Assembly: GCA_900095095.1 (NCBI GenBank)
Contig: FMBT01000308.1
Span: forward strand, 372,001-436,000
Direction of reading: 5' to 3'
Source: Fragilariopsis cylindrus CCMP1102
Taxonomy: Eukaryota; Bacillariophyta; Bacillariophyceae; Bacillariales; Bacillariaceae
Length of the DNA stretch: 64,000 bases
Shown: positions 9,193 through 30,100 of the stretch, piece after piece
How positions within the stretch are numbered: position 1 is the stretch's first letter
Layout of the letters: the number at the start of each line of letters is the position of its first letter
The notes under the pieces: generated by a model
The model's database searches: none
Told to the model about the DNA's origin: nothing
The model's input: the letters and a program-made list of their open reading frames with translations, nothing else
Program-made: the position numbers and the translations under genes

Positions 9193-12100
9193 TTATTCAA
9201 TTCCTTTGTACGGAGCAAACCATCGCGTTGATTGTGTATCCGTTACTGTAGGTGTTCTTTGTATTGTTATGGTACCATTGGTATGAGTAGCTAGAATTCG
9301 GAAGGGACCTGAAGACCTTTCCGACAGTTTTGATTTATTCCATACGATTTGCATCACTCTATCTCCTACTCGGAAGTGATGTTCAATTCTTCTTTTATTT
9401 TGTTTGATTAGATTTTCATCAATCATCTGTTGACGTCCATTTCGGATTGTTGCTAAGTTTGCTAATAATGGTACATCCATAATCATATCTCTACCGTACA
9501 CCATTGCTCCTGGGGAAGTTCCTATCGGTGCACTGACTGAGCATCTCATTGCATGCATACATGTTGCTAATGCGTTATCCATTACTTGGTTCGCATCATT
9601 CATATTCTGTGGTGGATTAGTATGTAATACTACTCGTAGTATGTCACCTATTGTCTGATGCATTCTTTCGCATATTGCATTTGCTTGAGGATTTCGTACT
9701 GCTGTACACACATCCTTTATACCATATCTTGCCAATAGATCGACGAACGTCAATCCAATGAACTCGGTTCCATTATCATGTACACATCTATTTGGTCTGG
9801 GATATCTTGACAGCCAAGAGTTTTCAAACTGTTCTGCTACATGCATCATGGTTTTGTTTTGAATACGAATCAATTCCACTAAGTTTGTTACAGGATCGAT
9901 GCAGGTTAGTGCTTTAAACACACATATGTTTCCATTGACGACGATTTCCCATGGACCGATTAGATCAATACATACTTCATTCCATGGTGATATATTAGCA
10001 TGTCTTGGTGGTAATTTACCATATCCTCTGCCTTGTTGTTTATACATATGACAGTTTTCTGGGCATACATATTCCTTACAATGTACTGATAATCTTTCGG
10101 CGTGAAATCTAGCCCTTATTGTATTGTATACTTTCGTCGTTCCGCAATGTCCTAGTAGTAGATGATACCATCTAATAACATTTTGTATCATTGATTGTGG
10201 TAGATATATTTTCCATTCAGGTTGTAATACTGTTGCATTGTCTCGATAGCATATTAGATTGCGTCCGTTGATAACTCGTATCGGATATATATGTGGCTGA
10301 GCTAACGACATTTGTATCAGCCTCACATCACCAGCTTGATGCTGTTGTATATTATGAACTGTTGTTGGACAATTCATCTCCTGTAAGGTAGGTAGATTCA
10401 TGAATAGTTCAATCATTTCAATGTCTTCATTTCGACATATTGTTGGTAGTATTTGAGGATCTTTATCGTGTTCATCGTATGAAAAGAATACATCTTGTTC
10501 ATCCGTTGGTACTATTATCTTGTTCCAATCAATAAGTTTTCCTTTTAACTCATTCTTCCCCGGCGAGGGTGCATCCATACGAGGCAGCCTTGAAAAAGCA
10601 TCTGCAAGAACATTGACTTTGCCTGGAACATACTGTAAGTTAATATCATAATCTTCCAGGAAAAGCTTCCATCTCATTACACGAGGTGGCGATAGTGTAT
10701 GAAAAGTTAAATTTTTGTGGTCAGTGAAGACATTCAGTCGACCTCCATATAAAATGTCATGGTACTCTTTAATACACATTACAATTGCGAGTAGCTCCTT
10801 CTCTGTTGTATTGTAGTTCTTCTGTGATTCAGTTAATTTCTTAGACCAATACGCGATTGGCTTTCCATTTTGTATAATTGCAGCACCAAGTTGATAGTCA
10901 CTTGCATCTGTATATATATCAAATGGCAAATTCAAATCGGGGTAAGTTGTCATTGCGTCTGCAGCAATCATTGCTTTCATTGTATCATACGCTTTGACCT
11001 GTCGAGGGCCCCATACAAAGGGTACATCTCCAGTTAATTCATGTAAGGGTGCTAGTATATGTGACCGTCTCGGCCACATACTTTTGTAGAAAGTTACTGC
11101 ACCAATGAATGATCGTACTTGTGTTTTGTCAGTTGGTCGACCTAATTTGAGTACTGCCTCAACTTTGTTTCTCATTGGTGTTATACCTTCTGGCGTCATG
11201 TAATGTCCAAGGAAGTGTGCTTCCTTGACTCCCCATTTACATTTCAATGGATTACATTTCATTCCATTTGATGTTAGTCTTTCCAAAACTGTGTCAACTA
11301 TTTTAAAGTGATCATCAAATGTACCTTTGGTCCAAATACCAAGATCATCCATGTATGCATCTATATCTAGACCATGTAGAATTTTCTTTATCATCGATTG
11401 GGCAAAGTCCGGAGACACTTTGATACCCATTGGTACTCGATTGTATTGATATTTACCAAATGGAGTTGTTATTGTACAGAGCTCCTTGCTCTCTTCATCC
11501 ATTTCAAAACAGTAAAACATCATAGAAAGATCAATCTTTGTAAAGTGACTATAACCTCTCTGTTTTAACATGATGTCTTGTATTTTTGGTACCGGATACT
11601 GTGGACGTTCTAGGTGTTTGTTCAATTCCCTGAAGTCACTGACCCATCTAACTGTATTATTGGATTTTGGAATTATAAAAGTTGGTGAAGCCCAATTTGT
11701 CATTCCACAACGACGAAGCACTCCATCTTTTTCTAGATTCTCTAGTTCGCGTTTGAAGACCTCTTGTCTCGTATATGGAACAGGATATGGCTTTTTATGA
11801 ACTGGTTTTGTACCTTGTTTGATTTGTAAGTGAAGTTTTTCATGTGGATAATAACCCAATTTTCCATCAAAAAGCTTTTTATGCTTGTCTAGCATTCGTT
11901 CGAACTTAATTCGTTCATCTAATGACATATGATCCTGTTCATCCGCACATTCTTTAGGAGTTACTTCCTTGTATTTTCTTTCTAATATTGTTTTGATTTC
12001 GAAGAGTTCATCTTCTTTGTACTGATTTGTATTAACATTGTTGTTGTAATGATGTGGAGTTTTCATCGGTACCGTCCGATCTATCCATTTTATTTCATTT

Positions 12101-12660
12101 GTTTCCCAAGACATAGAGATGCCTGCTAAACGAAGGAAGTCTCTTCCTAAGATGATGTCGTACTGACAGTTGGGAGCATCGAACAGTCTAGTTGATACTG
12201 CTTCTAATCGTCTACCATTGCTAAATTCTGGTAAACTCACATTTCTCATTGTTACTGATAAGGATGTGTCAAAAGACCCTGATGCAGTGGTTGTTATTTG
12301 ACGACGTTCCGATCGACTTGGACATGCTCCAGGGGGTAGACAACGTCTATTCAGTAGTGTTCCACTACTTCCTCCATCGAATAACACTACTAGTGGTCGT
12401 TCGATATATTGTCCTTGTATTGTTTGACACCTTAATATTGATATTGGTGCTAAATCAACAGATTCTTCTGTTTCAGCTTGTAATGCTGCATATAATTCAT
12501 TGTGGTTCATCCACTCATTCATACATAGATTAGATTCGCTGGGATCAGTGTTCAACTGATCGACTCGTTGCTCAAACAATGAGGAGTCGTTGTTAGACGC
12601 CAGTACATTCAGTACTGTGCCTGCCTTCACATCAACATTCTGCACTTCTTGTGCCTGCAT
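9193..12660 (-). CDS. pol: Retrotransposon Pol: protease, reverse transcriptase, RNase H, integrase
   Basis: 1,155 residues from an ATG at 12660, although translation probably enters from gag in the same frame. The aspartic protease motif FDGGSSG is at about residues 94-100. Reverse transcriptase has its YMDD catalytic box near 435-439 (AYMDDLGIW). RNase H begins YTDASDYQLGAA near 580 and includes TDHKNLTF. Integrase has an HHCC zinc finger (LLLGHCG...CPENC, about 830-865) and DDE core residues in CIDLIGPW, HDNGTEFIG and ANAICERMHQ. The domain order and the primer-grip region are typical of Ty3/Gypsy. All catalytic residues are present. The C-terminus ends FAPYKGIE without a chromodomain. Confidence 0.97.
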   Translation of the reverse strand: MQAQEVQNVDVKAGTVLNVLASNNDSSLFEQRVDQLNTDPSESNLCMNEWMNHNELYAALQAETEESVDLAPISILRCQTIQGQYIERPLVVLFDGGSSGTLLNRRCLPPGACPSRSERRQITTTASGSFDTSLSVTMRNVSLPEFSNGRRLEAVSTRLFDAPNCQYDIILGRDFLRLAGISMSWETNEIKWIDRTVPMKTPHHYNNNVNTNQYKEDELFEIKTILERKYKEVTPKECADEQDHMSLDERIKFERMLDKHKKLFDGKLGYYPHEKLHLQIKQGTKPVHKKPYPVPYTRQEVFKRELENLEKDGVLRRCGMTNWASPTFIIPKSNNTVRWVSDFRELNKHLERPQYPVPKIQDIMLKQRGYSHFTKIDLSMMFYCFEMDEESKELCTITTPFGKYQYNRVPMGIKVSPDFAQSMIKKILHGLDIDAYMDDLGIWTKGTFDDHFKIVDTVLERLTSNGMKCNPLKCKWGVKEAHFLGHYMTPEGITPMRNKVEAVLKLGRPTDKTQVRSFIGAVTFYKSMWPRRSHILAPLHELTGDVPFVWGPRQVKAYDTMKAMIAADAMTTYPDLNLPFDIYTDASDYQLGAAIIQNGKPIAYWSKKLTESQKNYNTTEKELLAIVMCIKEYHDILYGGRLNVFTDHKNLTFHTLSPPRVMRWKLFLEDYDINLQYVPGKVNVLADAFSRLPRMDAPSPGKNELKGKLIDWNKIIVPTDEQDVFFSYDEHDKDPQILPTICRNEDIEMIELFMNLPTLQEMNCPTTVHNIQQHQAGDVRLIQMSLAQPHIYPIRVINGRNLICYRDNATVLQPEWKIYLPQSMIQNVIRWYHLLLGHCGTTKVYNTIRARFHAERLSVHCKEYVCPENCHMYKQQGRGYGKLPPRHANISPWNEVCIDLIGPWEIVVNGNICVFKALTCIDPVTNLVELIRIQNKTMMHVAEQFENSWLSRYPRPNRCVHDNGTEFIGLTFVDLLARYGIKDVCTAVRNPQANAICERMHQTIGDILRVVLHTNPPQNMNDANQVMDNALATCMHAMRCSVSAPIGTSPGAMVYGRDMIMDVPLLANLATIRNGRQQMIDENLIKQNKRRIEHHFRVGDRVMQIVWNKSKLSERSSGPFRILATHTNGTITIQRTPTVTDTQSTRWFAPYKGIE

Positions 12661-19752: not shown

Positions 19753-22700
19753 ATGATGAGTTGTCGTCGTCATAAAGCACTCATCAGCAGACATCATAAC
19801 GTAACGAAAGTATCGTTATTAATAATACAGCTATTAATAATATGTTCTTCTTTTCTGCCTGATGGGTCCACTCTTTCCGTCGTTCATGCAGCTCAAACGA
19901 AAAAACAAGAAAGCTCGTCCACCACTCCCTCTCTACCTTCCCCCACGTCGATGCAGTCCTTTCCTCTACCACCTGCATTCATTCCTAGCTTCTTTCAAGG
20001 AAGAGATGAAGAAATCGTAGATGCACTCTGTACGATGGATGATTTGGAACGAGCAAATGATATACAATTACATATTATATTTCGTGAATTACAACAAACC
20101 AATTTCTTTCAACATTTTGTGGTTGATTTAGAACATAAATGTCCCCTCGTTGGATTTTCGTCGTCATCATCGTCATCATCATCATCGTCGTCGTCGTCGA
20201 CGGGCGGTAAGAAGGAATCGAAAAAGAAAACAGTGATTCCTTCTCCGTTTTCATTTCCATCTTCAAATGGATTGGACAGCAGCAACAACGACGACGAAGA
20301 AGATGACGATTTTCAATGTTCGGGTGGTGCTGAAGAAATTGACGAAGACGCACCACCACTCTGTACTATCGATGCTGGTAGTGATGTAGACAGTAGTATG
20401 ATGTTTTCAGGATTAGGTGGTGGTGGTGGAGGAGGAGCAGGAGCAGGAACAACACCCGGTATGACATCAATGGGATCTAATGTGTTACAGAGTCTGTCAC
20501 AGACAGGATTTTCGGGGGCCGCACAACGAGATACCTTTGCGTGGAAACAAACAACTGACATGGTCGTTCAAGATGATGACACTCCCTGTGATACAGATGG
20601 ACCGGAAGATGATGGTGTATTTAATGTACCTGATACATTTTGGATGGACATGTGTAGTAATATTTATAAGGGAGAGGGAACTAAACTTGTCAATCTTGCT
20701 CTAAACCCCGAACGCAATACCTACTACAATGGTACACATATTTGGAAGGCGATATACGACGAAAATTGTATAACGAATGATGAATCTTGTTTAGAAGAAA
20801 GAGTTTTGTATCGATTATTGAGTGGGATGCATACGTCCACTACACTGAGTATTGCAAAGAATTATTATCCACCTTCGAAACGACATAATCGAACAGATTG
20901 GGAGGCTAACCCACAATACTTTATGTCACGGTTTCACGAACATCCAGACCATATTCGTAATTTACATTTTTCATATGTGGTATTACTCCGTGCTATTAAA
21001 AAGGCCAGTGTGTACCTATACAATTATGATATCACCTCTGGAAATGTCGTAGAAGACGAGGCATCGAGTATTTTATTAAAACGATTACTTGATACAACCA
21101 TTTTACGGTCGTGTTCGGACGTATTTTCCGCGTTCGATGAGTCGGTTATGTTTCAGGCGGGAGTAGATGACGGAGACAATGAAAGCAGCATGTTACTACA
21201 AAAATCCTTTAAGGGGGTATTCCACAACATATCAAGTATCTTAGATTGTGTTCAATGTCAGCAATGCAAATTACATGGTAAATTAACCATGCTTGGGTAC
21301 GGCACGGCGTTAAAAATTCTGTTCACTAAATCATTGGATAATTTGATCCTTGAACCGAATGAGGTTGTAGCACTTATTAATTCTGCTGCCCGATTATCAG
21401 AGAACCTTGTCGAAGTTCGAGAATTAACAACCATGTACTGGGAAAAAGAACGGACCAAGATCGCTGACCTAGAGGCAGCAACAGAAGCTGGTAAAAGTGC
21501 TGTAGTGACAGTTTCCCAATCGTCGTCGTCATCTTCCTCTTTGTCTTATGATAGCTTGGATGTTCTTGATGTCACCGTTGGTTTGATTTCCAGATCCGGA
21601 CAAAGGGAATTAATCTCGTTGGATAGAGAAACAGAACTCATTAATATGGCATTGACAAGAAATCCAGAGTTAATGATTTTGGGCAAACATTATCACAATG
21701 ATCCCGAAAAGTTTGTATCTATGTCGAACAATTTGGGAAAATTAGGTGGTAGTAGTATCTCTACTTCTCTACCTGTGAAGCCGCCAGATGCTATTGTTAT
21801 TGGTAGCGGCCTTGCTGGATTGGCAGCCTCGTTGAATATTTTAGACCGAGGAGGTACTGTAGTTATATTAGAAAAAGAGCACTTACTCGGAGGGAATTCA
21901 AACAAAGCAAGTTCGGGTATCAACGGATACTGCCCCCATAACGAAACATGCCATGATTCTGTTGAAGTCTTCCGGAATGATACGATTCGATCGGCTGGAA
22001 AAGTAGCAGACTTGGATCTCATTGAAGTCCTGGTAACGAAAAGTGAGCAAGCAGTTTTGTGGCTGAAGAATCGTGCAAACGTTGATCTATCTCTATTGGC
22101 TCAGCTAGGAGGTCATACTAACAAACGCACTCATAGACCGAGTAATGGAATGGCCGGGTCAGAGATAATTTACCATCTTCAGAAGACAGTCCGCTCGTTC
22201 GAAAAGACAGGTCGTCTCAAGATTTTGATTGATACCCAAGTAAAAGAACTACTAACCGAAGAAGAAGGCGACCGAGTTGTAGGTGTTCTCGTAGAATCCA
22301 CCAATGATGGATCTGTTCAAGAGATTCTTGCGGACAATATAATTTTAGCCACAGGTGGTTTTGCTTCGGACCGTTCTTCTGGATCGTATTTAGATCAACA
22401 TCGTCCCGAGCTTATGTCGTTTCCAGCCACGGCAGGTGGGTTTTCTACCGGAGATGGTATTAAGCTGGCCACCACTCTAGGTGCCGCCACCAGAGACATG
22501 GATAAGGTTCAGATTCATCCCACGGGATGGGTCGACCCTTCTGATTCTACAAATCCAACCAAAATCCTTGCTGCGGAACTATTGAGAGGAGTTGGAGGTA
22601 TTCTGATTGACCATTCTGGCGAACGGTTTTCGAATGAGTTGGGAACTCGAGCGTACGTGACGGAACAAATGTTAAAACACGACGCAGAGTTTATGAAAAC

Positions 22701-23514
22701 AGGGCAGTGGGATCGTTCTTCGGAGGTACCTACATTCTACCTTGTGCTATCTTCCTCAGCAGCGTTAGACGCCCAAAAGCATGTAGATTTATATTCTCAC
22801 AAAGGCCTGTTGACGAAAGTTGAGGGCATTGATGCCCTTTCTAAATACATGGAAATTGATAGAAAAACGGTCGCAAAAACGATAAGGGACTATCAATCAT
22901 CAGCTGCTAAGGGACTGGACGAATTTGGTAAGACATCCTTTCGCGGTATTCCCGCAAAGGATTTAAAAGCAGAAACTTTCTTTGTTGGTACAATTACACC
23001 AGTTTTGCACTACTGCATGGGTGGAATCAAGATCAAACCAGACTGCAGTGTTGTCAGAGAGGATGGAACAGTCATTGATGGGCTTCATGCTGCTGGGGAA
23101 GTAACGGGTGGCGTTCATGGTAACAACCGACTGGGGGGCAATTCGCTCTTGGAGTGCACCGTGTTTGGAACTATTGCCGGTCAAAAAGTTCCTATCAAGG
23201 AAGAAGGAAGTTATCGGTTAGCCATCGGACCCGAAGAGAAGAATAAGGGACATGCAGATTCTACAGCTCAAAGACCAAATGAGATTCCTAACGTGAAGAT
23301 TGAGGAGCTGGCTAAGCATAATACAAAAGAAGATATGTGGGTGGCTATACATGGATTCGTCTATGATTTAACAGAGTTCGCTGACGAGCACCCTGCTGGA
23401 TTCGATTCGATTTTTAATCTTGCTGGCACAGATGGAACCGCAGCATTTGATGCTGTTCATAATTTGGGAATGCTTGAAGACTTTGAAGGAGATAAACGAG
23501 GTGTACTCGTATGA
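19753..23514 (+). CDS. ERO1 thiol oxidase fused to soluble fumarate reductase and cytochrome b5
   Basis: Single exon, 1,253 residues. Residues 1-46 are a signal peptide ending VVHA. ERO1 covers about 90-600: LNPERNTYYNG with R321, RLLSGMHTS with S357 and H360, LLRAIKK with R413, and the active-site CVQCQQCKLHGKL (C499, C502, C505) followed by GYGTALKILF. These match the FAD-binding and catalytic features of ERO1, which oxidises PDI. The fumarate reductase flavoprotein covers about 676-1150: AIVIGSGLAGLAASL, HPTGW (H922), LLRGVGG (R945), HYCMGGI (H1086) and HGNNRLGGNSL (R1126), the catalytic set of Osm1/FrdA-type soluble enzymes. A cytochrome b5 domain covers about 1180-1253, with haem ligands H1213 (HPAG) and H1236. 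Poly-Ser, Asp/Glu and Gly inserts lie within residues 145-260. The canonical CxxxxC shuttle pair is absent; C189/C204 or C279/C301 may replace it. No C-terminal retention signal is seen. Confidence 0.95.
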   Translation: MMSCRRHKALISRHHNVTKVSLLIIQLLIICSSFLPDGSTLSVVHAAQTKKQESSSTTPSLPSPTSMQSFPLPPAFIPSFFQGRDEEIVDALCTMDDLERANDIQLHIIFRELQQTNFFQHFVVDLEHKCPLVGFSSSSSSSSSSSSSSTGGKKESKKKTVIPSPFSFPSSNGLDSSNNDDEEDDDFQCSGGAEEIDEDAPPLCTIDAGSDVDSSMMFSGLGGGGGGGAGAGTTPGMTSMGSNVLQSLSQTGFSGAAQRDTFAWKQTTDMVVQDDDTPCDTDGPEDDGVFNVPDTFWMDMCSNIYKGEGTKLVNLALNPERNTYYNGTHIWKAIYDENCITNDESCLEERVLYRLLSGMHTSTTLSIAKNYYPPSKRHNRTDWEANPQYFMSRFHEHPDHIRNLHFSYVVLLRAIKKASVYLYNYDITSGNVVEDEASSILLKRLLDTTILRSCSDVFSAFDESVMFQAGVDDGDNESSMLLQKSFKGVFHNISSILDCVQCQQCKLHGKLTMLGYGTALKILFTKSLDNLILEPNEVVALINSAARLSENLVEVRELTTMYWEKERTKIADLEAATEAGKSAVVTVSQSSSSSSSLSYDSLDVLDVTVGLISRSGQRELISLDRETELINMALTRNPELMILGKHYHNDPEKFVSMSNNLGKLGGSSISTSLPVKPPDAIVIGSGLAGLAASLNILDRGGTVVILEKEHLLGGNSNKASSGINGYCPHNETCHDSVEVFRNDTIRSAGKVADLDLIEVLVTKSEQAVLWLKNRANVDLSLLAQLGGHTNKRTHRPSNGMAGSEIIYHLQKTVRSFEKTGRLKILIDTQVKELLTEEEGDRVVGVLVESTNDGSVQEILADNIILATGGFASDRSSGSYLDQHRPELMSFPATAGGFSTGDGIKLATTLGAATRDMDKVQIHPTGWVDPSDSTNPTKILAAELLRGVGGILIDHSGERFSNELGTRAYVTEQMLKHDAEFMKTGQWDRSSEVPTFYLVLSSSAALDAQKHVDLYSHKGLLTKVEGIDALSKYMEIDRKTVAKTIRDYQSSAAKGLDEFGKTSFRGIPAKDLKAETFFVGTITPVLHYCMGGIKIKPDCSVVREDGTVIDGLHAAGEVTGGVHGNNRLGGNSLLECTVFGTIAGQKVPIKEEGSYRLAIGPEEKNKGHADSTAQRPNEIPNVKIEELAKHNTKEDMWVAIHGFVYDLTEFADEHPAGFDSIFNLAGTDGTAAFDAVHNLGMLEDFEGDKRGVLV

Positions 23515-27110: not shown

Positions 27111-30100
27111 ATGCCCAAGATGAACGACGGCAACAAGAACAAAGAGAAAAAACCATCTCCTGATAATGTATTTGACCTTACTGGTGGTACCAGCGATGAG
27201 GACGACCACGAGCAAGACATTCGATTAGGTGAGGTAAGAAAAGAATTAGAACCACCATCCGGCAGGAAGAAAAGGAAAAACAAACGATACAATAACGGTA
27301 CAGAAGGTCTAAAGACTACTGGTTTGGCAGACGATGTCATTGTCATTGCTGATAGTGACGACAGCGATAATGATGATGATGATGATGATGATATCATTGA
27401 AGTTGATCCTTTGGCAGCGGCGCTAGCAGTTTCAAATGGATATCGTCCCAACAAAAAAGTCAAAAAGGAGGGATATCGCAAGTACAAAACTGCTGTTGAC
27501 GACGACAACAACAACAACAACAACGATGAATGCATGATTGTACCGGCGACCAAATATAAAATAACTACAGCTACTGCCGCTGGAGGAGGAGGTAACGGTG
27601 GCGTCAACGGCGGGGACGACGAAGACGTTGTTGTGGCAGGAGTTCGTAACGAAATGAGACTACCACATATGAGACAACACTGCACAACATTTCGATTCAA
27701 TTCGACCGGTCCAGCAGCAGCAGCAGCAAGTGCTAGTTTTAACAACAACAACGAGAATTATCAGATATCAATTCTGGAAGAGAATAATAAATCATGTGAC
27801 TTATGCTACTGCTATATATGTGACGGTCCCGTCACAGATTGCAAGCAATGGTTCTCGTCAACATCATTCACTTCACAGAACAATCACTGCTGTGCTAGTG
27901 ACAATAATGGGAAATGGGAAAGCATGCGGATGCGTTGTCGAGCAAACAAGGCCCGATCATCGTCGTCTTCGGGTGATTCGAACAAGAATAGCGGCGACGG
28001 CGACGACAACAACGATCACTCTCCCCATGGAAGGCATTTGATGAAGGATTGTATCAGTCCCTATAATAGAACATGTTGTACAAGTTGTTGGTGTTATATC
28101 TGTGATACACCAGCAAACTTATGCGATGAAGTATACAATCACCGATATGCTGATCCTACCAAATCTTCCGATCGTGAGTTACGGGCACGAAGAAAATTAT
28201 CCACATATGATCAAGATGGACCATTCGATCCGAGAACAACACCTGACGCACTCCAAGATCCATCATTATCGCAGTGTCGTCACTGTTCGTGGTATGTCCG
28301 ACTTTCCACGAACCATCGTCGTAGTTCACCCAGCTCTGCCGATTGGTGCGGAGCTTGCGGCCGTGTTGCGATGGACAAAGATCTTGAGAAACAACAACAA
28401 CAACAACCAACGACATCATCAACGAAGGGGAATAGTAAGAAGCAGATAGTAGTAGATTCGTATTTTTTTGGACAGAAAGATATTCCATTCCGGATCAAAG
28501 CACACGATCCGAGATTATTTGATGCGTACAAGAAAAATTGGGAGGATAATAATAATAATACTTCTGAATGGAACTACGATGCAACAGAGATCGAGGAAGA
28601 AGTCTTTCTTCATCGCGTCGGTAAGGCTCCGAAGCTTGCAAATTTGTTGCAGTCCATATCGTTAGTGAAGGAAGAAAATATCCCTTCAAAGCCATCAAAA
28701 GGTCTTCCGTTTGCAAAAGGCCGAGACATATATACTCTACGAGATGCTACCGAAGCTGTCATTATTGACAATCCGAACCATGTGCAACTAATCAGCCTCC
28801 TTGCTGGGGGACAATGTGGAGATGCTCTCTACAATTGGATTGATGTAACTGCATCGTGGGATAAAGATTCGAGAACTGGTGTTCTAAAAGTCCAACTTTC
28901 TCTTCCTAAACAATCATTTTTGGGGAATTACAACAACAGTAACATCAACATCCGCACATTCAGTCCGCGTTTGGTTGGAATTCTAGGTTTGTGGTGTAAT
29001 GTACTACCATTGGAAACGTCGGAAATCTGTGGTCTATTGAAGATTACAGAACCACAAGATATTATTGACGACATTAAGAAACTCAACAACTATGGAACCA
29101 AAAAAGTTGTTGATATTCCAATTGAACCGTTCAACGTGAAACTAGACTCTGTCATCCCTCATATCTACAATCAGCTTCTTTCCACCAAGACCAGCTTAAT
29201 GAATGGAAAAAATATCTACGAAAGTCAACTTTCATTGAATTCGAGCAATAATTCTCGCTTAAGCGGTGGCGTGTGTGGATCTTCTTCGTCCTTCCACGAC
29301 TCTCTTGTTCGTTATTTTTCTGAACATTTTGGATCATTGAGTTCGTCCGTATCGTATCGAACAAGCAAAAATTTGATTTCGAATAGTCAAGGGATGATTC
29401 GACGAAATCACACCGGCTCTGACAATCATAACCATAGGCACCATCAATCCACCGACACCTCTCTCCTTGATTGTGTCCTTGGATTCCAGCCTGCGATTTA
29501 TGCCCAAGCTTGTTTTGGAAAAGATTCTCAAAAGATCGTAACCTCAGATCTTCGATCTATCAAGAATACTATGATAAGTCTTGAGAACTTAGGTCATCCT
29601 GCTGAAGAATTTGTTGAAGGCCTGAACGTTGAGCTATTGGACTTCCAACGTCAATCGTTGCGATGGGCGCTAGACCGAGAACGTAACGGATCTCAATCCT
29701 TCCATTGGTTGAAAGTTCCCAGGGATCAAGGAGAGGAAGATCTATATTTCAACCCCGTTTTAAAGCAGTTCAGAACTGATAAGCCTGCATTGGTCAGAGG
29801 TGGATTTATATGTGAGGAGATGGGTCTGTAAGTTATCTTGACACGTACTAGTACTCGTTTGTGTGATTGAATGTGTTTCTTGTTCTCTTACTAACATCAT
29901 GCTCATTGCCACCATATTCATAGTGGTAAGACTGTTATATCATTAGCACTTATCTTGAAGGATCCAGCACCCGAGAACCCTTTAAGTGGAAGCCTAACTT
30001 CGATGCTTGGTGCTTCTTCAACCAGCTACTCTAATCTTGTGTCTGATTCACCTGGTTGGGACAATGATATGTACAAGAAGACATCGGTTGACAACAAGAA

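What the first reader, a model, noticed from the sequence alone, without database searches (positions are those of the whole stretch)
19753..23514. One polypeptide joins ERO1, fumarate reductase and cytochrome b5
A continuous 1,253-codon exon encodes a secreted ERO1 thiol oxidase followed by a complete Osm1-like fumarate reductase. Both catalytic sets are intact (C499/C502/C505; H922, R945, H1086, R1126). In yeast, soluble fumarate reductase Osm1 has been linked to Ero1-driven disulfide formation without oxygen. A covalent fusion would hard-wire that link: PDI to ERO1 FAD to fumarate reductase FAD to fumarate, giving oxygen-independent oxidative folding with less peroxide. I know of no description of such a fusion.
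Basis: partly seen in the sequence, partly recalled or inferred. Interest (0 to 1): 0.95.

Follow-up and report, generated by a model that had tools for sequence, protein, structure and literature searches.

The report
Disulfide-making enzyme fused to fumarate reductase
A diatom gene encodes one protein that joins the enzyme that makes protein disulfide bonds (ERO1) to a fumarate reductase and a haem domain, and the same fusion is found, with its catalytic residues intact, in other diatoms and in distant algae and protists, so it may let cells fold secreted proteins without oxygen.

Summary
Window 19753-23514 (+) is one intact 1253-codon frame: signal-like N-terminus, ERO1, linker, Osm1-class soluble fumarate reductase (FRD), cytochrome b5. 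It is not a local oddity. Of 301 proteins held, 206 match both halves and 183 pass coverage filters with b5. Some are transcripts; named members are diatoms, Guillardia theta (cryptophyte), Prasinococcus capsulatus (green lineage) and Mucochytrium quahogii (thraustochytrid). In 183 of 183, the ERO1 active-site cysteines and the six FRD residues that were mutated in yeast Osm1 are unchanged; both b5 haem histidines are kept in 182. The two halves have concordant trees: 18 of 19 well-supported ERO1 splits recur in the FRD tree, with no strong conflict. This points to one old fusion inherited as a unit. The genome also has separate ERO1 genes, and no other Osm1-class FRD was detected. Best reading: a luminal, fumarate-using disulfide generator, the covalent form of the yeast Ero1-Osm1 couple, with b5 as a possible electron bridge. 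Fusion, conservation and co-inheritance are shown; electron flow to fumarate, the role of b5 and ER location are inferred. No structure could be predicted. Nine searches of an open-access library found no description.

The parts
19753..23514 (+). Whole fusion ORF, 1253 aa, single exon, stop included
19753..19890 (+). N-terminal signal-peptide-like segment (residues 1-46, end placed by eye; most hydrophobic 12-mer at residues 20-31)
   Evidence: mean Kyte-Doolittle 2.97; 118 of 137 fusions with a usable N-terminus pass 1.8, against 366 of 2740 internal 80-mers
20068..21408 (+). ERO1 domain (residues 106-552)
20317..20364 (+). Presumed shuttle cysteine loop C189-X14-C204 (long-loop form)
   Evidence: spacing 10-43 residues in the 171 of 183 fusions that could be scored
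21247..21267 (+). ERO1 active-site motif C499-x2-C502-x2-C505 (active pair C502-C505)
   Evidence: 183 of 183; yeast C349, C352, C355
21550..21720 (+). Linker module, residues 600-656, conserved in the fusions, no Pfam match
   Evidence: D606 176 of 183, E626 181 of 183, F654 173 of 183
21787..23184 (+). Soluble (Osm1/flavocytochrome c class) fumarate reductase domain, residues 679-1144
22516..22518 (+). H922 (Osm1 H281, Fcc3 H365)
22585..22587 (+). R945 (Osm1 R304, Fcc3 R381)
22648..22650 (+).
23008..23010 (+). H1086 (Osm1 H435, Fcc3 H504)
23128..23130 (+). R1126 (Osm1 R477, Fcc3 R544)
23302..23463 (+). Cytochrome b5 domain (residues 1184-1237) with presumed haem ligands H1213 and H1236
   Evidence: each H in 182 of 183

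Best explanation
It is a luminal disulfide generator that carries its own non-oxygen electron acceptor enzyme. PDI-like carriers are oxidised through the C189/C204 shuttle pair and the C502-C505 active site of ERO1, reducing the ERO1 FAD. The electrons then pass to the FRD FAD and reduce fumarate to succinate, so disulfides can be made without oxygen and, when fumarate is used, without hydrogen peroxide. The conserved b5 haem is the most likely relay between the two flavins. Shown here: one polypeptide, all catalytic residues, conservation and co-inheritance of both halves. Inferred: ER location, electron flow between the halves, fumarate as the acceptor, the b5 relay.
For: Three domains in one intact frame. 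In 183 full fusions: C499, C502, C505, W331, H360, S720, S721, H922, E942, R945, R966, H1086, R1126 and G1129 183 of 183; b5 H1213 and H1236 182 of 183. These include the six residues that Kim et al. 2018 mutated in Osm1 as critical candidates (PMC6242907, passages). In the window protein yeast Ero1 FAD contacts R187, T189, W200, S228, H231 and R260 are kept (contacts recalled; mapping). The same paper reports that purified Ero1 and Osm1 pass electrons to fumarate and form disulfides in an anaerobic-like assay (passages). Halves co-diverge: distance correlation 0.878, shuffle maximum 0.163; 18 of 19 supported ERO1 splits found in the FRD tree, no strong conflict. Signal-like N-terminus, and no other membrane-like stretch in 177 of 183. 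Conserved N-glycosylation sequons in the ERO1 half (N326 178 of 183, N492 182 of 183) and, in about half the rows, in the FRD half (N730 102, N742 98 of 183). No other Osm1-class FRD found in the genome, while other ERO1 genes are separate.
Against: No activity, localisation or structure data. Osm1's second flavin pocket is only partly kept: W295, F297, F362 and N359 become T936, I938, L1013 and H1010, and P162 becomes M800 or a gap depending on the alignment, so electron entry may differ from yeast. Some diatoms have FRD-b5 or FRD-b5-b5 proteins without ERO1, so b5 and FRD can work apart from ERO1. No KDEL-type tail in any of 183. Separate ERO1 genes in the same genome mean the fusion need not be the main disulfide source. 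A fumarate supply to the ER lumen is not shown.
Confidence: 0.6

Rival explanations
1. Two activities are tethered but not wired to each other. ERO1 uses oxygen as usual, and FRD-b5 is fed by another donor (a b5 reductase, free reduced flavin) to balance redox in the lumen.
For: ERO1-less FRD-b5 and FRD-b5-b5 proteins exist in diatoms, so b5 can serve FRD without ERO1. Osm1 oxidises free reduced flavins (PMC6242907, abstract and passages).
Against: Both halves stay joined through deep divergence with concordant trees, and the free-flavin pocket is only partly conserved.
Confidence: 0.2
2. The reductase half reduces another unsaturated acid (urocanate-like, acrylate-like or aromatic) rather than fumarate.
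For: The flavocytochrome c family includes urocanate reductase, which also matches (6t85). Substrate was not tested.
Against: All six residues singled out in Osm1 and Fcc3 are kept, H922 included, in 183 of 183. From recall only, urocanate reductases carry a tyrosine at the H365 position.
Confidence: 0.1
3. The protein works in a secretory-derived compartment other than the bulk ER (silica deposition vesicle, periplastid space, vacuole) and makes disulfides there.
For: No KDEL-type tail in any of 183.
Against: Human ERO1 also lacks KDEL (recall). The fusion is also in Guillardia, Prasinococcus and Mucochytrium, which have no silica walls (recall).
Confidence: 0.08
4. Gene-model or assembly artefact joining two neighbouring genes.
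For: One haplotype contig has frame-breaking indels in the N-terminal part.
Against: 206 of 301 held proteins match both halves, including 22 transcriptome-derived rows, with a conserved linker and concordant trees.
Confidence: 0.01

Closest known systems
Yeast Ero1-Osm1 couple (Kim et al. 2018, PMC6242907; abstract and passages seen)
   Same: ERO1 and an Osm1-class FRD; electrons from Ero1 FAD to fumarate, disulfides without oxygen; all six residues mutated in Osm1 are kept
   Different: Two separate yeast proteins with weak affinity (about 200 uM) and no haem domain; here one chain plus b5 and a conserved linker module; the second flavin pocket is altered
Canonical ERO1 (yeast Ero1, human ERO1-alpha; separate ERO1 genes on C439/C216 and C184 of this genome)
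   Same: ERO1 domain by Pfam, C-x2-C-x2-C motif, FAD-contact residues
   Different: Those are not fused and have a short shuttle loop (C-X4-C on C439 and C184); the fusions have C-X10 to X43-C, sometimes duplicated; yeast regulatory C295 (role recalled) aligns with T428
Shewanella flavocytochrome c3 fumarate reductase
   Same: Same FRD family; a haem domain in the same chain feeds the FAD (PMC6242907, passage)
   Different: Tetrahaem c-type domain at the N-terminus, periplasmic (recall); here b5 at the C-terminus plus ERO1
Trypanosomatid NADH-dependent fumarate reductase (recall, not compared here)
   Same: FRD domain in a multidomain eukaryotic flavoprotein
   Different: Carries NADH-side reductase parts instead of ERO1 (recall); no such Pfam domain found here

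Membership tests
ERO1 thiol oxidase | Pfam ERO1 domain over cut-off | tested here: met
   261.9 bits against cut-off 27, residues 106-552
ERO1 thiol oxidase | Active-site cysteine pair | tested here: met
   C502, C505 = yeast C352, C355; 183 of 183
ERO1 thiol oxidase | Shuttle cysteine pair | tested here: inconclusive
   A pair at the expected place is kept (C189 in 171, C204 in 174 of 183, the rest gaps), but the loop is 10-43 residues in 171 rows against X4 in the own standalone ERO1s; pairing and activity untested
ERO1 thiol oxidase | Oxidises PDI, binds FAD | not testable with these tools
   FAD-contact residues kept (contacts recalled)
Osm1-class soluble fumarate reductase | Flavocytochrome c / FRD family membership | tested here: met
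   TIGR01813 365.5 bits against cut-off 285.45; best PDB match yeast Fumarate reductase 2 (Osm1), 5glg
Osm1-class soluble fumarate reductase | Six critical residues (Osm1 H281, E301, R304, R326, H435, R477) | tested here: met
   H922, E942, R945, R966, H1086, R1126, each 183 of 183
Osm1-class soluble fumarate reductase | Second flavin pocket described for Osm1 (K76, S78, P162, W295, F297, L298, N359, F362, Y363) | tested here: not met
   K76, S78, L298 and Y363 kept; P162, W295, F297, N359 and F362 changed in the window protein. K718 is not constant in the divergent rows (K in 10 of 39). This is an Osm1 trait, not one that defines the whole FRD family
Osm1-class soluble fumarate reductase | Reduces fumarate | not testable with these tools
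   No assay
Cytochrome b5 | Pfam Cyt-b5 and two haem-ligand histidines | tested here: met
   66.8 bits against 23.7; H1213 and H1236 182 of 183 (ligand role recalled)
ER luminal protein | Signal peptide | tested here: inconclusive
   Hydrophobic N-terminus by a simple hydropathy test, 118 of 137; no dedicated predictor available

The most novel reading that the evidence does not exclude
An ancient, undescribed class of oxygen-independent oxidative-folding enzyme, ERO1-FRD-b5, is spread over stramenopiles, cryptophytes and green-lineage algae. Its built-in b5 haem is the relay that the separate yeast Ero1 and Osm1 lack, so these cells have an anaerobic branch of ER disulfide formation with succinate as the product.
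Probability: 0.38. Interest if true: 0.92.

Novelty: new variant of a known kind. Interest (0 to 1): 0.82.

Why it matters
How eukaryotes make disulfides when oxygen is short is an open question outside yeast; [quoted passage not shown] A natural covalent ERO1-FRD-b5 enzyme makes the idea directly testable with one purified protein and one knockout. It also suggests that fumarate-driven folding is old and widespread among algae and protists rather than a yeast speciality, and it offers a possible peroxide-free disulfide-making tool.

Tried and rejected
Artefact of assembly or annotation: rejected.

Diatom-only innovation: rejected after a profile of divergent fusions found named non-diatom members. 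Diatom contamination of those is unlikely: the FRD halves of P0263, P0276 and P0299 are 43-44% identical to the window's and they lie outside the diatom part of both trees.

Standalone FRD elsewhere in the genome: PF00890 hits on C571 and C260 look like SDHA and C66 like L-aspartate oxidase; these names are my reading of the pieces. The weaker PF00890 hits were not looked at. A gene could still be missing from the assembly.

Viral origin or carriage: none of 27 pattern matches in viral contigs encodes a relative.

Phaeodactylum N-glycoproteome as luminal evidence: 'Fumarate reductase flavoprotein (B7FVF5)' is listed with four sites (PMC8678454, passages). I could not show that B7FVF5 is the fusion, and the same list holds glycolytic and mitochondrial proteins, so I give it no weight.

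Single origin: the ERO1 tree puts 52 fused rows on one side (SH-aLRT 99) but has only four standalone rows, on very long branches and from yeast, human and this genome. In the FRD tree the fused label needs 4 changes, because diatom standalone FRDs nest among fused ones; starred branches force only 1. 13 of its 15 standalone rows came from the search with this FRD as query, so the set is biased. One of them (P0161) keeps a linker remnant, which suggests loss of ERO1.

Clusters are at 90% identity and most rows are unnamed metagenome sequences, so counts are not species counts. 301 proteins held; 95 match FRD but not ERO1, 23 more fail coverage or b5 filters, 183 used. The bolidophyte-like label of P0157 and P0190 is my inference; the one named Triparma row (P0175) is a partial FRD-b5 model without ERO1.

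Neighbouring genes gave no functional link.
Full report
WHAT IS THERE. The frame 19753-23514 (+) is open for 1253 codons. It has an N-terminal hydrophobic segment, ERO1 (106-552), a soluble fumarate reductase (679-1144) and cytochrome b5 (1184-1237), all far above curated cut-offs. The nearest solved structures by sequence are yeast Osm1 for the reductase and yeast Ero1 for the oxidase.

CATALYTIC RESIDUES. Alignment to yeast Ero1 and Osm1 puts C499, C502 and C505 on Ero1 C349, C352 and C355, so the active pair is C502-C505. Ero1 FAD contacts R187, T189, W200, S228, H231 and R260 (contacts recalled) are R321, T323, W331, S357, H360 and R393. Osm1 H281, E301, R304, R326, H435 and R477, which Kim et al. 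2018 mutated one by one because their Fcc3 counterparts are critical (PMC6242907, passages; the measured effects were not in the passages seen), are H922, E942, R945, R966, H1086 and R1126. The second flavin pocket of Osm1 is only partly kept (K718, S720, L939, Y1014 same; M800, T936, I938, H1010, L1013 different).

HOW WIDE IT IS. All 120 listed hits of the first search match ERO1, FRD and b5 together (568 hits in all). A search with the FRD half (120 listed of 6185; 118 new rows) returned 23 new rows with both halves, ERO1-less FRDs, several of them from named diatoms, and a partial FRD-b5 model from Triparma laevis. A profile of five divergent fusions returned 120 listed of 408; the listing shows the ERO1 and FRD Pfam domains for each, and all 62 new rows match both halves. 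Named members outside diatoms are Guillardia theta (P0263), Prasinococcus capsulatus (P0276) and Mucochytrium quahogii (P0299) (lineages). Named diatoms include Pseudo-nitzschia arenysensis, Cylindrotheca closterium, Thalassiosira profunda and oceanica, Leptocylindrus danicus and Pseudictyota dubia. 22 of the listed fused rows come from transcriptome sources.

CONSERVATION. Of 301 proteins held, 206 match both halves and 183 pass coverage plus b5. Across the 183, C499, C502, C505, H508, W331, H360, S720, S721, H922, E942, R945, R966, H1010, H1086, R1126 and G1129 are unchanged in all; H1213 and H1236 in 182. C189 is C in 171 and C204 in 174, the rest being gaps. 39 of the 183 have FRD under 50% identical to the window; in them the ERO1 motif, the FRD residues and the b5 histidines are 39 of 39, while K718, C1088 and some structural cysteines vary. 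The linker holds a conserved module with no Pfam match.

CO-INHERITANCE. For 52 fusions the ERO1 and FRD distance matrices correlate at 0.878 (2000 shuffles, maximum 0.163). 18 of 19 ERO1 splits with support of 95 or more are in the FRD tree, 19 of 24 the other way, 24 of 49 splits are shared overall, and no two strong splits conflict. Domains re-paired many times would not show this. The ERO1 halves fall on one side of the tree from four standalone ERO1s (few and long-branched). In the FRD tree some diatom standalone FRDs lie among fused ones, and one of them (P0161) keeps a linker remnant, as expected if ERO1 was lost from a fusion.

THE GENOME. The window's genome (67.9 Mb, 818 contigs, unnamed; a diatom by the relatives of this gene) has the fusion on two haplotypes (C164 and C797, colinear at about 98%), an ERO1 with C-X4-C shuttle on C439/C216, and a third ERO1 on C184. 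No other Osm1-class FRD was detected. So the fusion is an addition to, not a replacement of, standalone ERO1.

COMPARTMENT. 118 of 137 fusions with a usable N-terminus have a strong hydrophobic stretch in the first 80 residues, against 366 of 2740 internal stretches. 6 of 183 have another membrane-like stretch. Sequons are nearly fixed at N326 and N492 in the ERO1 half and present in about half the rows at N730 and N742 in the FRD half; no KDEL-type tail. This suggests the secretory lumen but does not prove it.

MECHANISM. Shown by others in yeast: Ero1 and Osm1 together form disulfides with fumarate in an anaerobic-like assay; their affinity is low, and the docked flavins are over 20 A apart, so the authors propose either a conformational change or indirect transfer through amino-acid residues or components they may have missed (PMC6242907, passages). 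Inferred here: fusion removes the affinity problem, and the b5 haem, with its ligands kept in 182 of 183, is a good candidate for the missing relay. By textbook potentials (recall), PDI to fumarate is downhill by roughly 0.2 V. Against a relay special to ERO1: ERO1-less FRD-b5-b5 proteins exist in diatoms.

NOVELTY. Nine searches of the open-access library listed no paper that by title, abstract start or the passages I opened describes such a fusion; the library lacks most subscription papers and all bioRxiv preprints. One sequence source already labels a member 'Endoplasmic Reticulum Oxidoreductin 1 (ERO1)/FAD binding domain' (P0232), so the architecture is in databases. I file it as a new variant of a known kind: the likely chemistry is that of the yeast Ero1-Osm1 couple, while the architecture, the b5 part and the spread are new to me.

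LIMITS. No structure, no expression data for this species, most relatives unnamed, and only the top 120 hits per search seen.

Noticed in passing
Fusion proteins P0053, P0054, P0056, P0059, P0063 and others: 57 of 161 scored fusions have 4 or 5 instead of 2 cysteines between C130 and C279; in the four printed the acidic C-X14-C-like shuttle loop is duplicated. All 33 scored divergent rows have 2.
   Followed up: partly
window 21550-21720 (residues 600-656): Conserved linker module with no Pfam match, seen across the 183 fusions and kept as a remnant in an ERO1-less Fragilaria FRD (P0161).
   Followed up: partly
G000:C184:498651-499770 (L004): A third ERO1 gene whose N-terminus (AVCTAF-SVP) resembles a diatom plastid-type signal-peptide cleavage motif (motif from recall) and whose presumed shuttle loop is C-X4-C; a possible plastid or periplastid ERO1.
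   Followed up: no
Proteins P0146, P0173, P0185 and others: Raphid diatoms encode FRD-b5 proteins of about 760-800 residues with an N-terminal extension and no ERO1; P0146 and P0173 end in two b5-like repeats by eye.
   Followed up: partly
G000:C797:2487-6231: The second haplotype of the fusion gene has several indels in the low-complexity N-terminal part that break its frame; real allele or uncorrected read errors cannot be told apart.
   Followed up: partly
Protein P0055 (Asterionellopsis): A fusion whose sequence appears to end in two b5-like repeats (read by eye).
   Followed up: no
window 9193-12660 (-): Large ORF with reverse transcriptase, RNase H and integrase-type domains: an LTR-type retrotransposon.
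   Followed up: no
window 27111-29831 (+): 906-codon ORF without a Pfam match at E 0.001.
   Followed up: no
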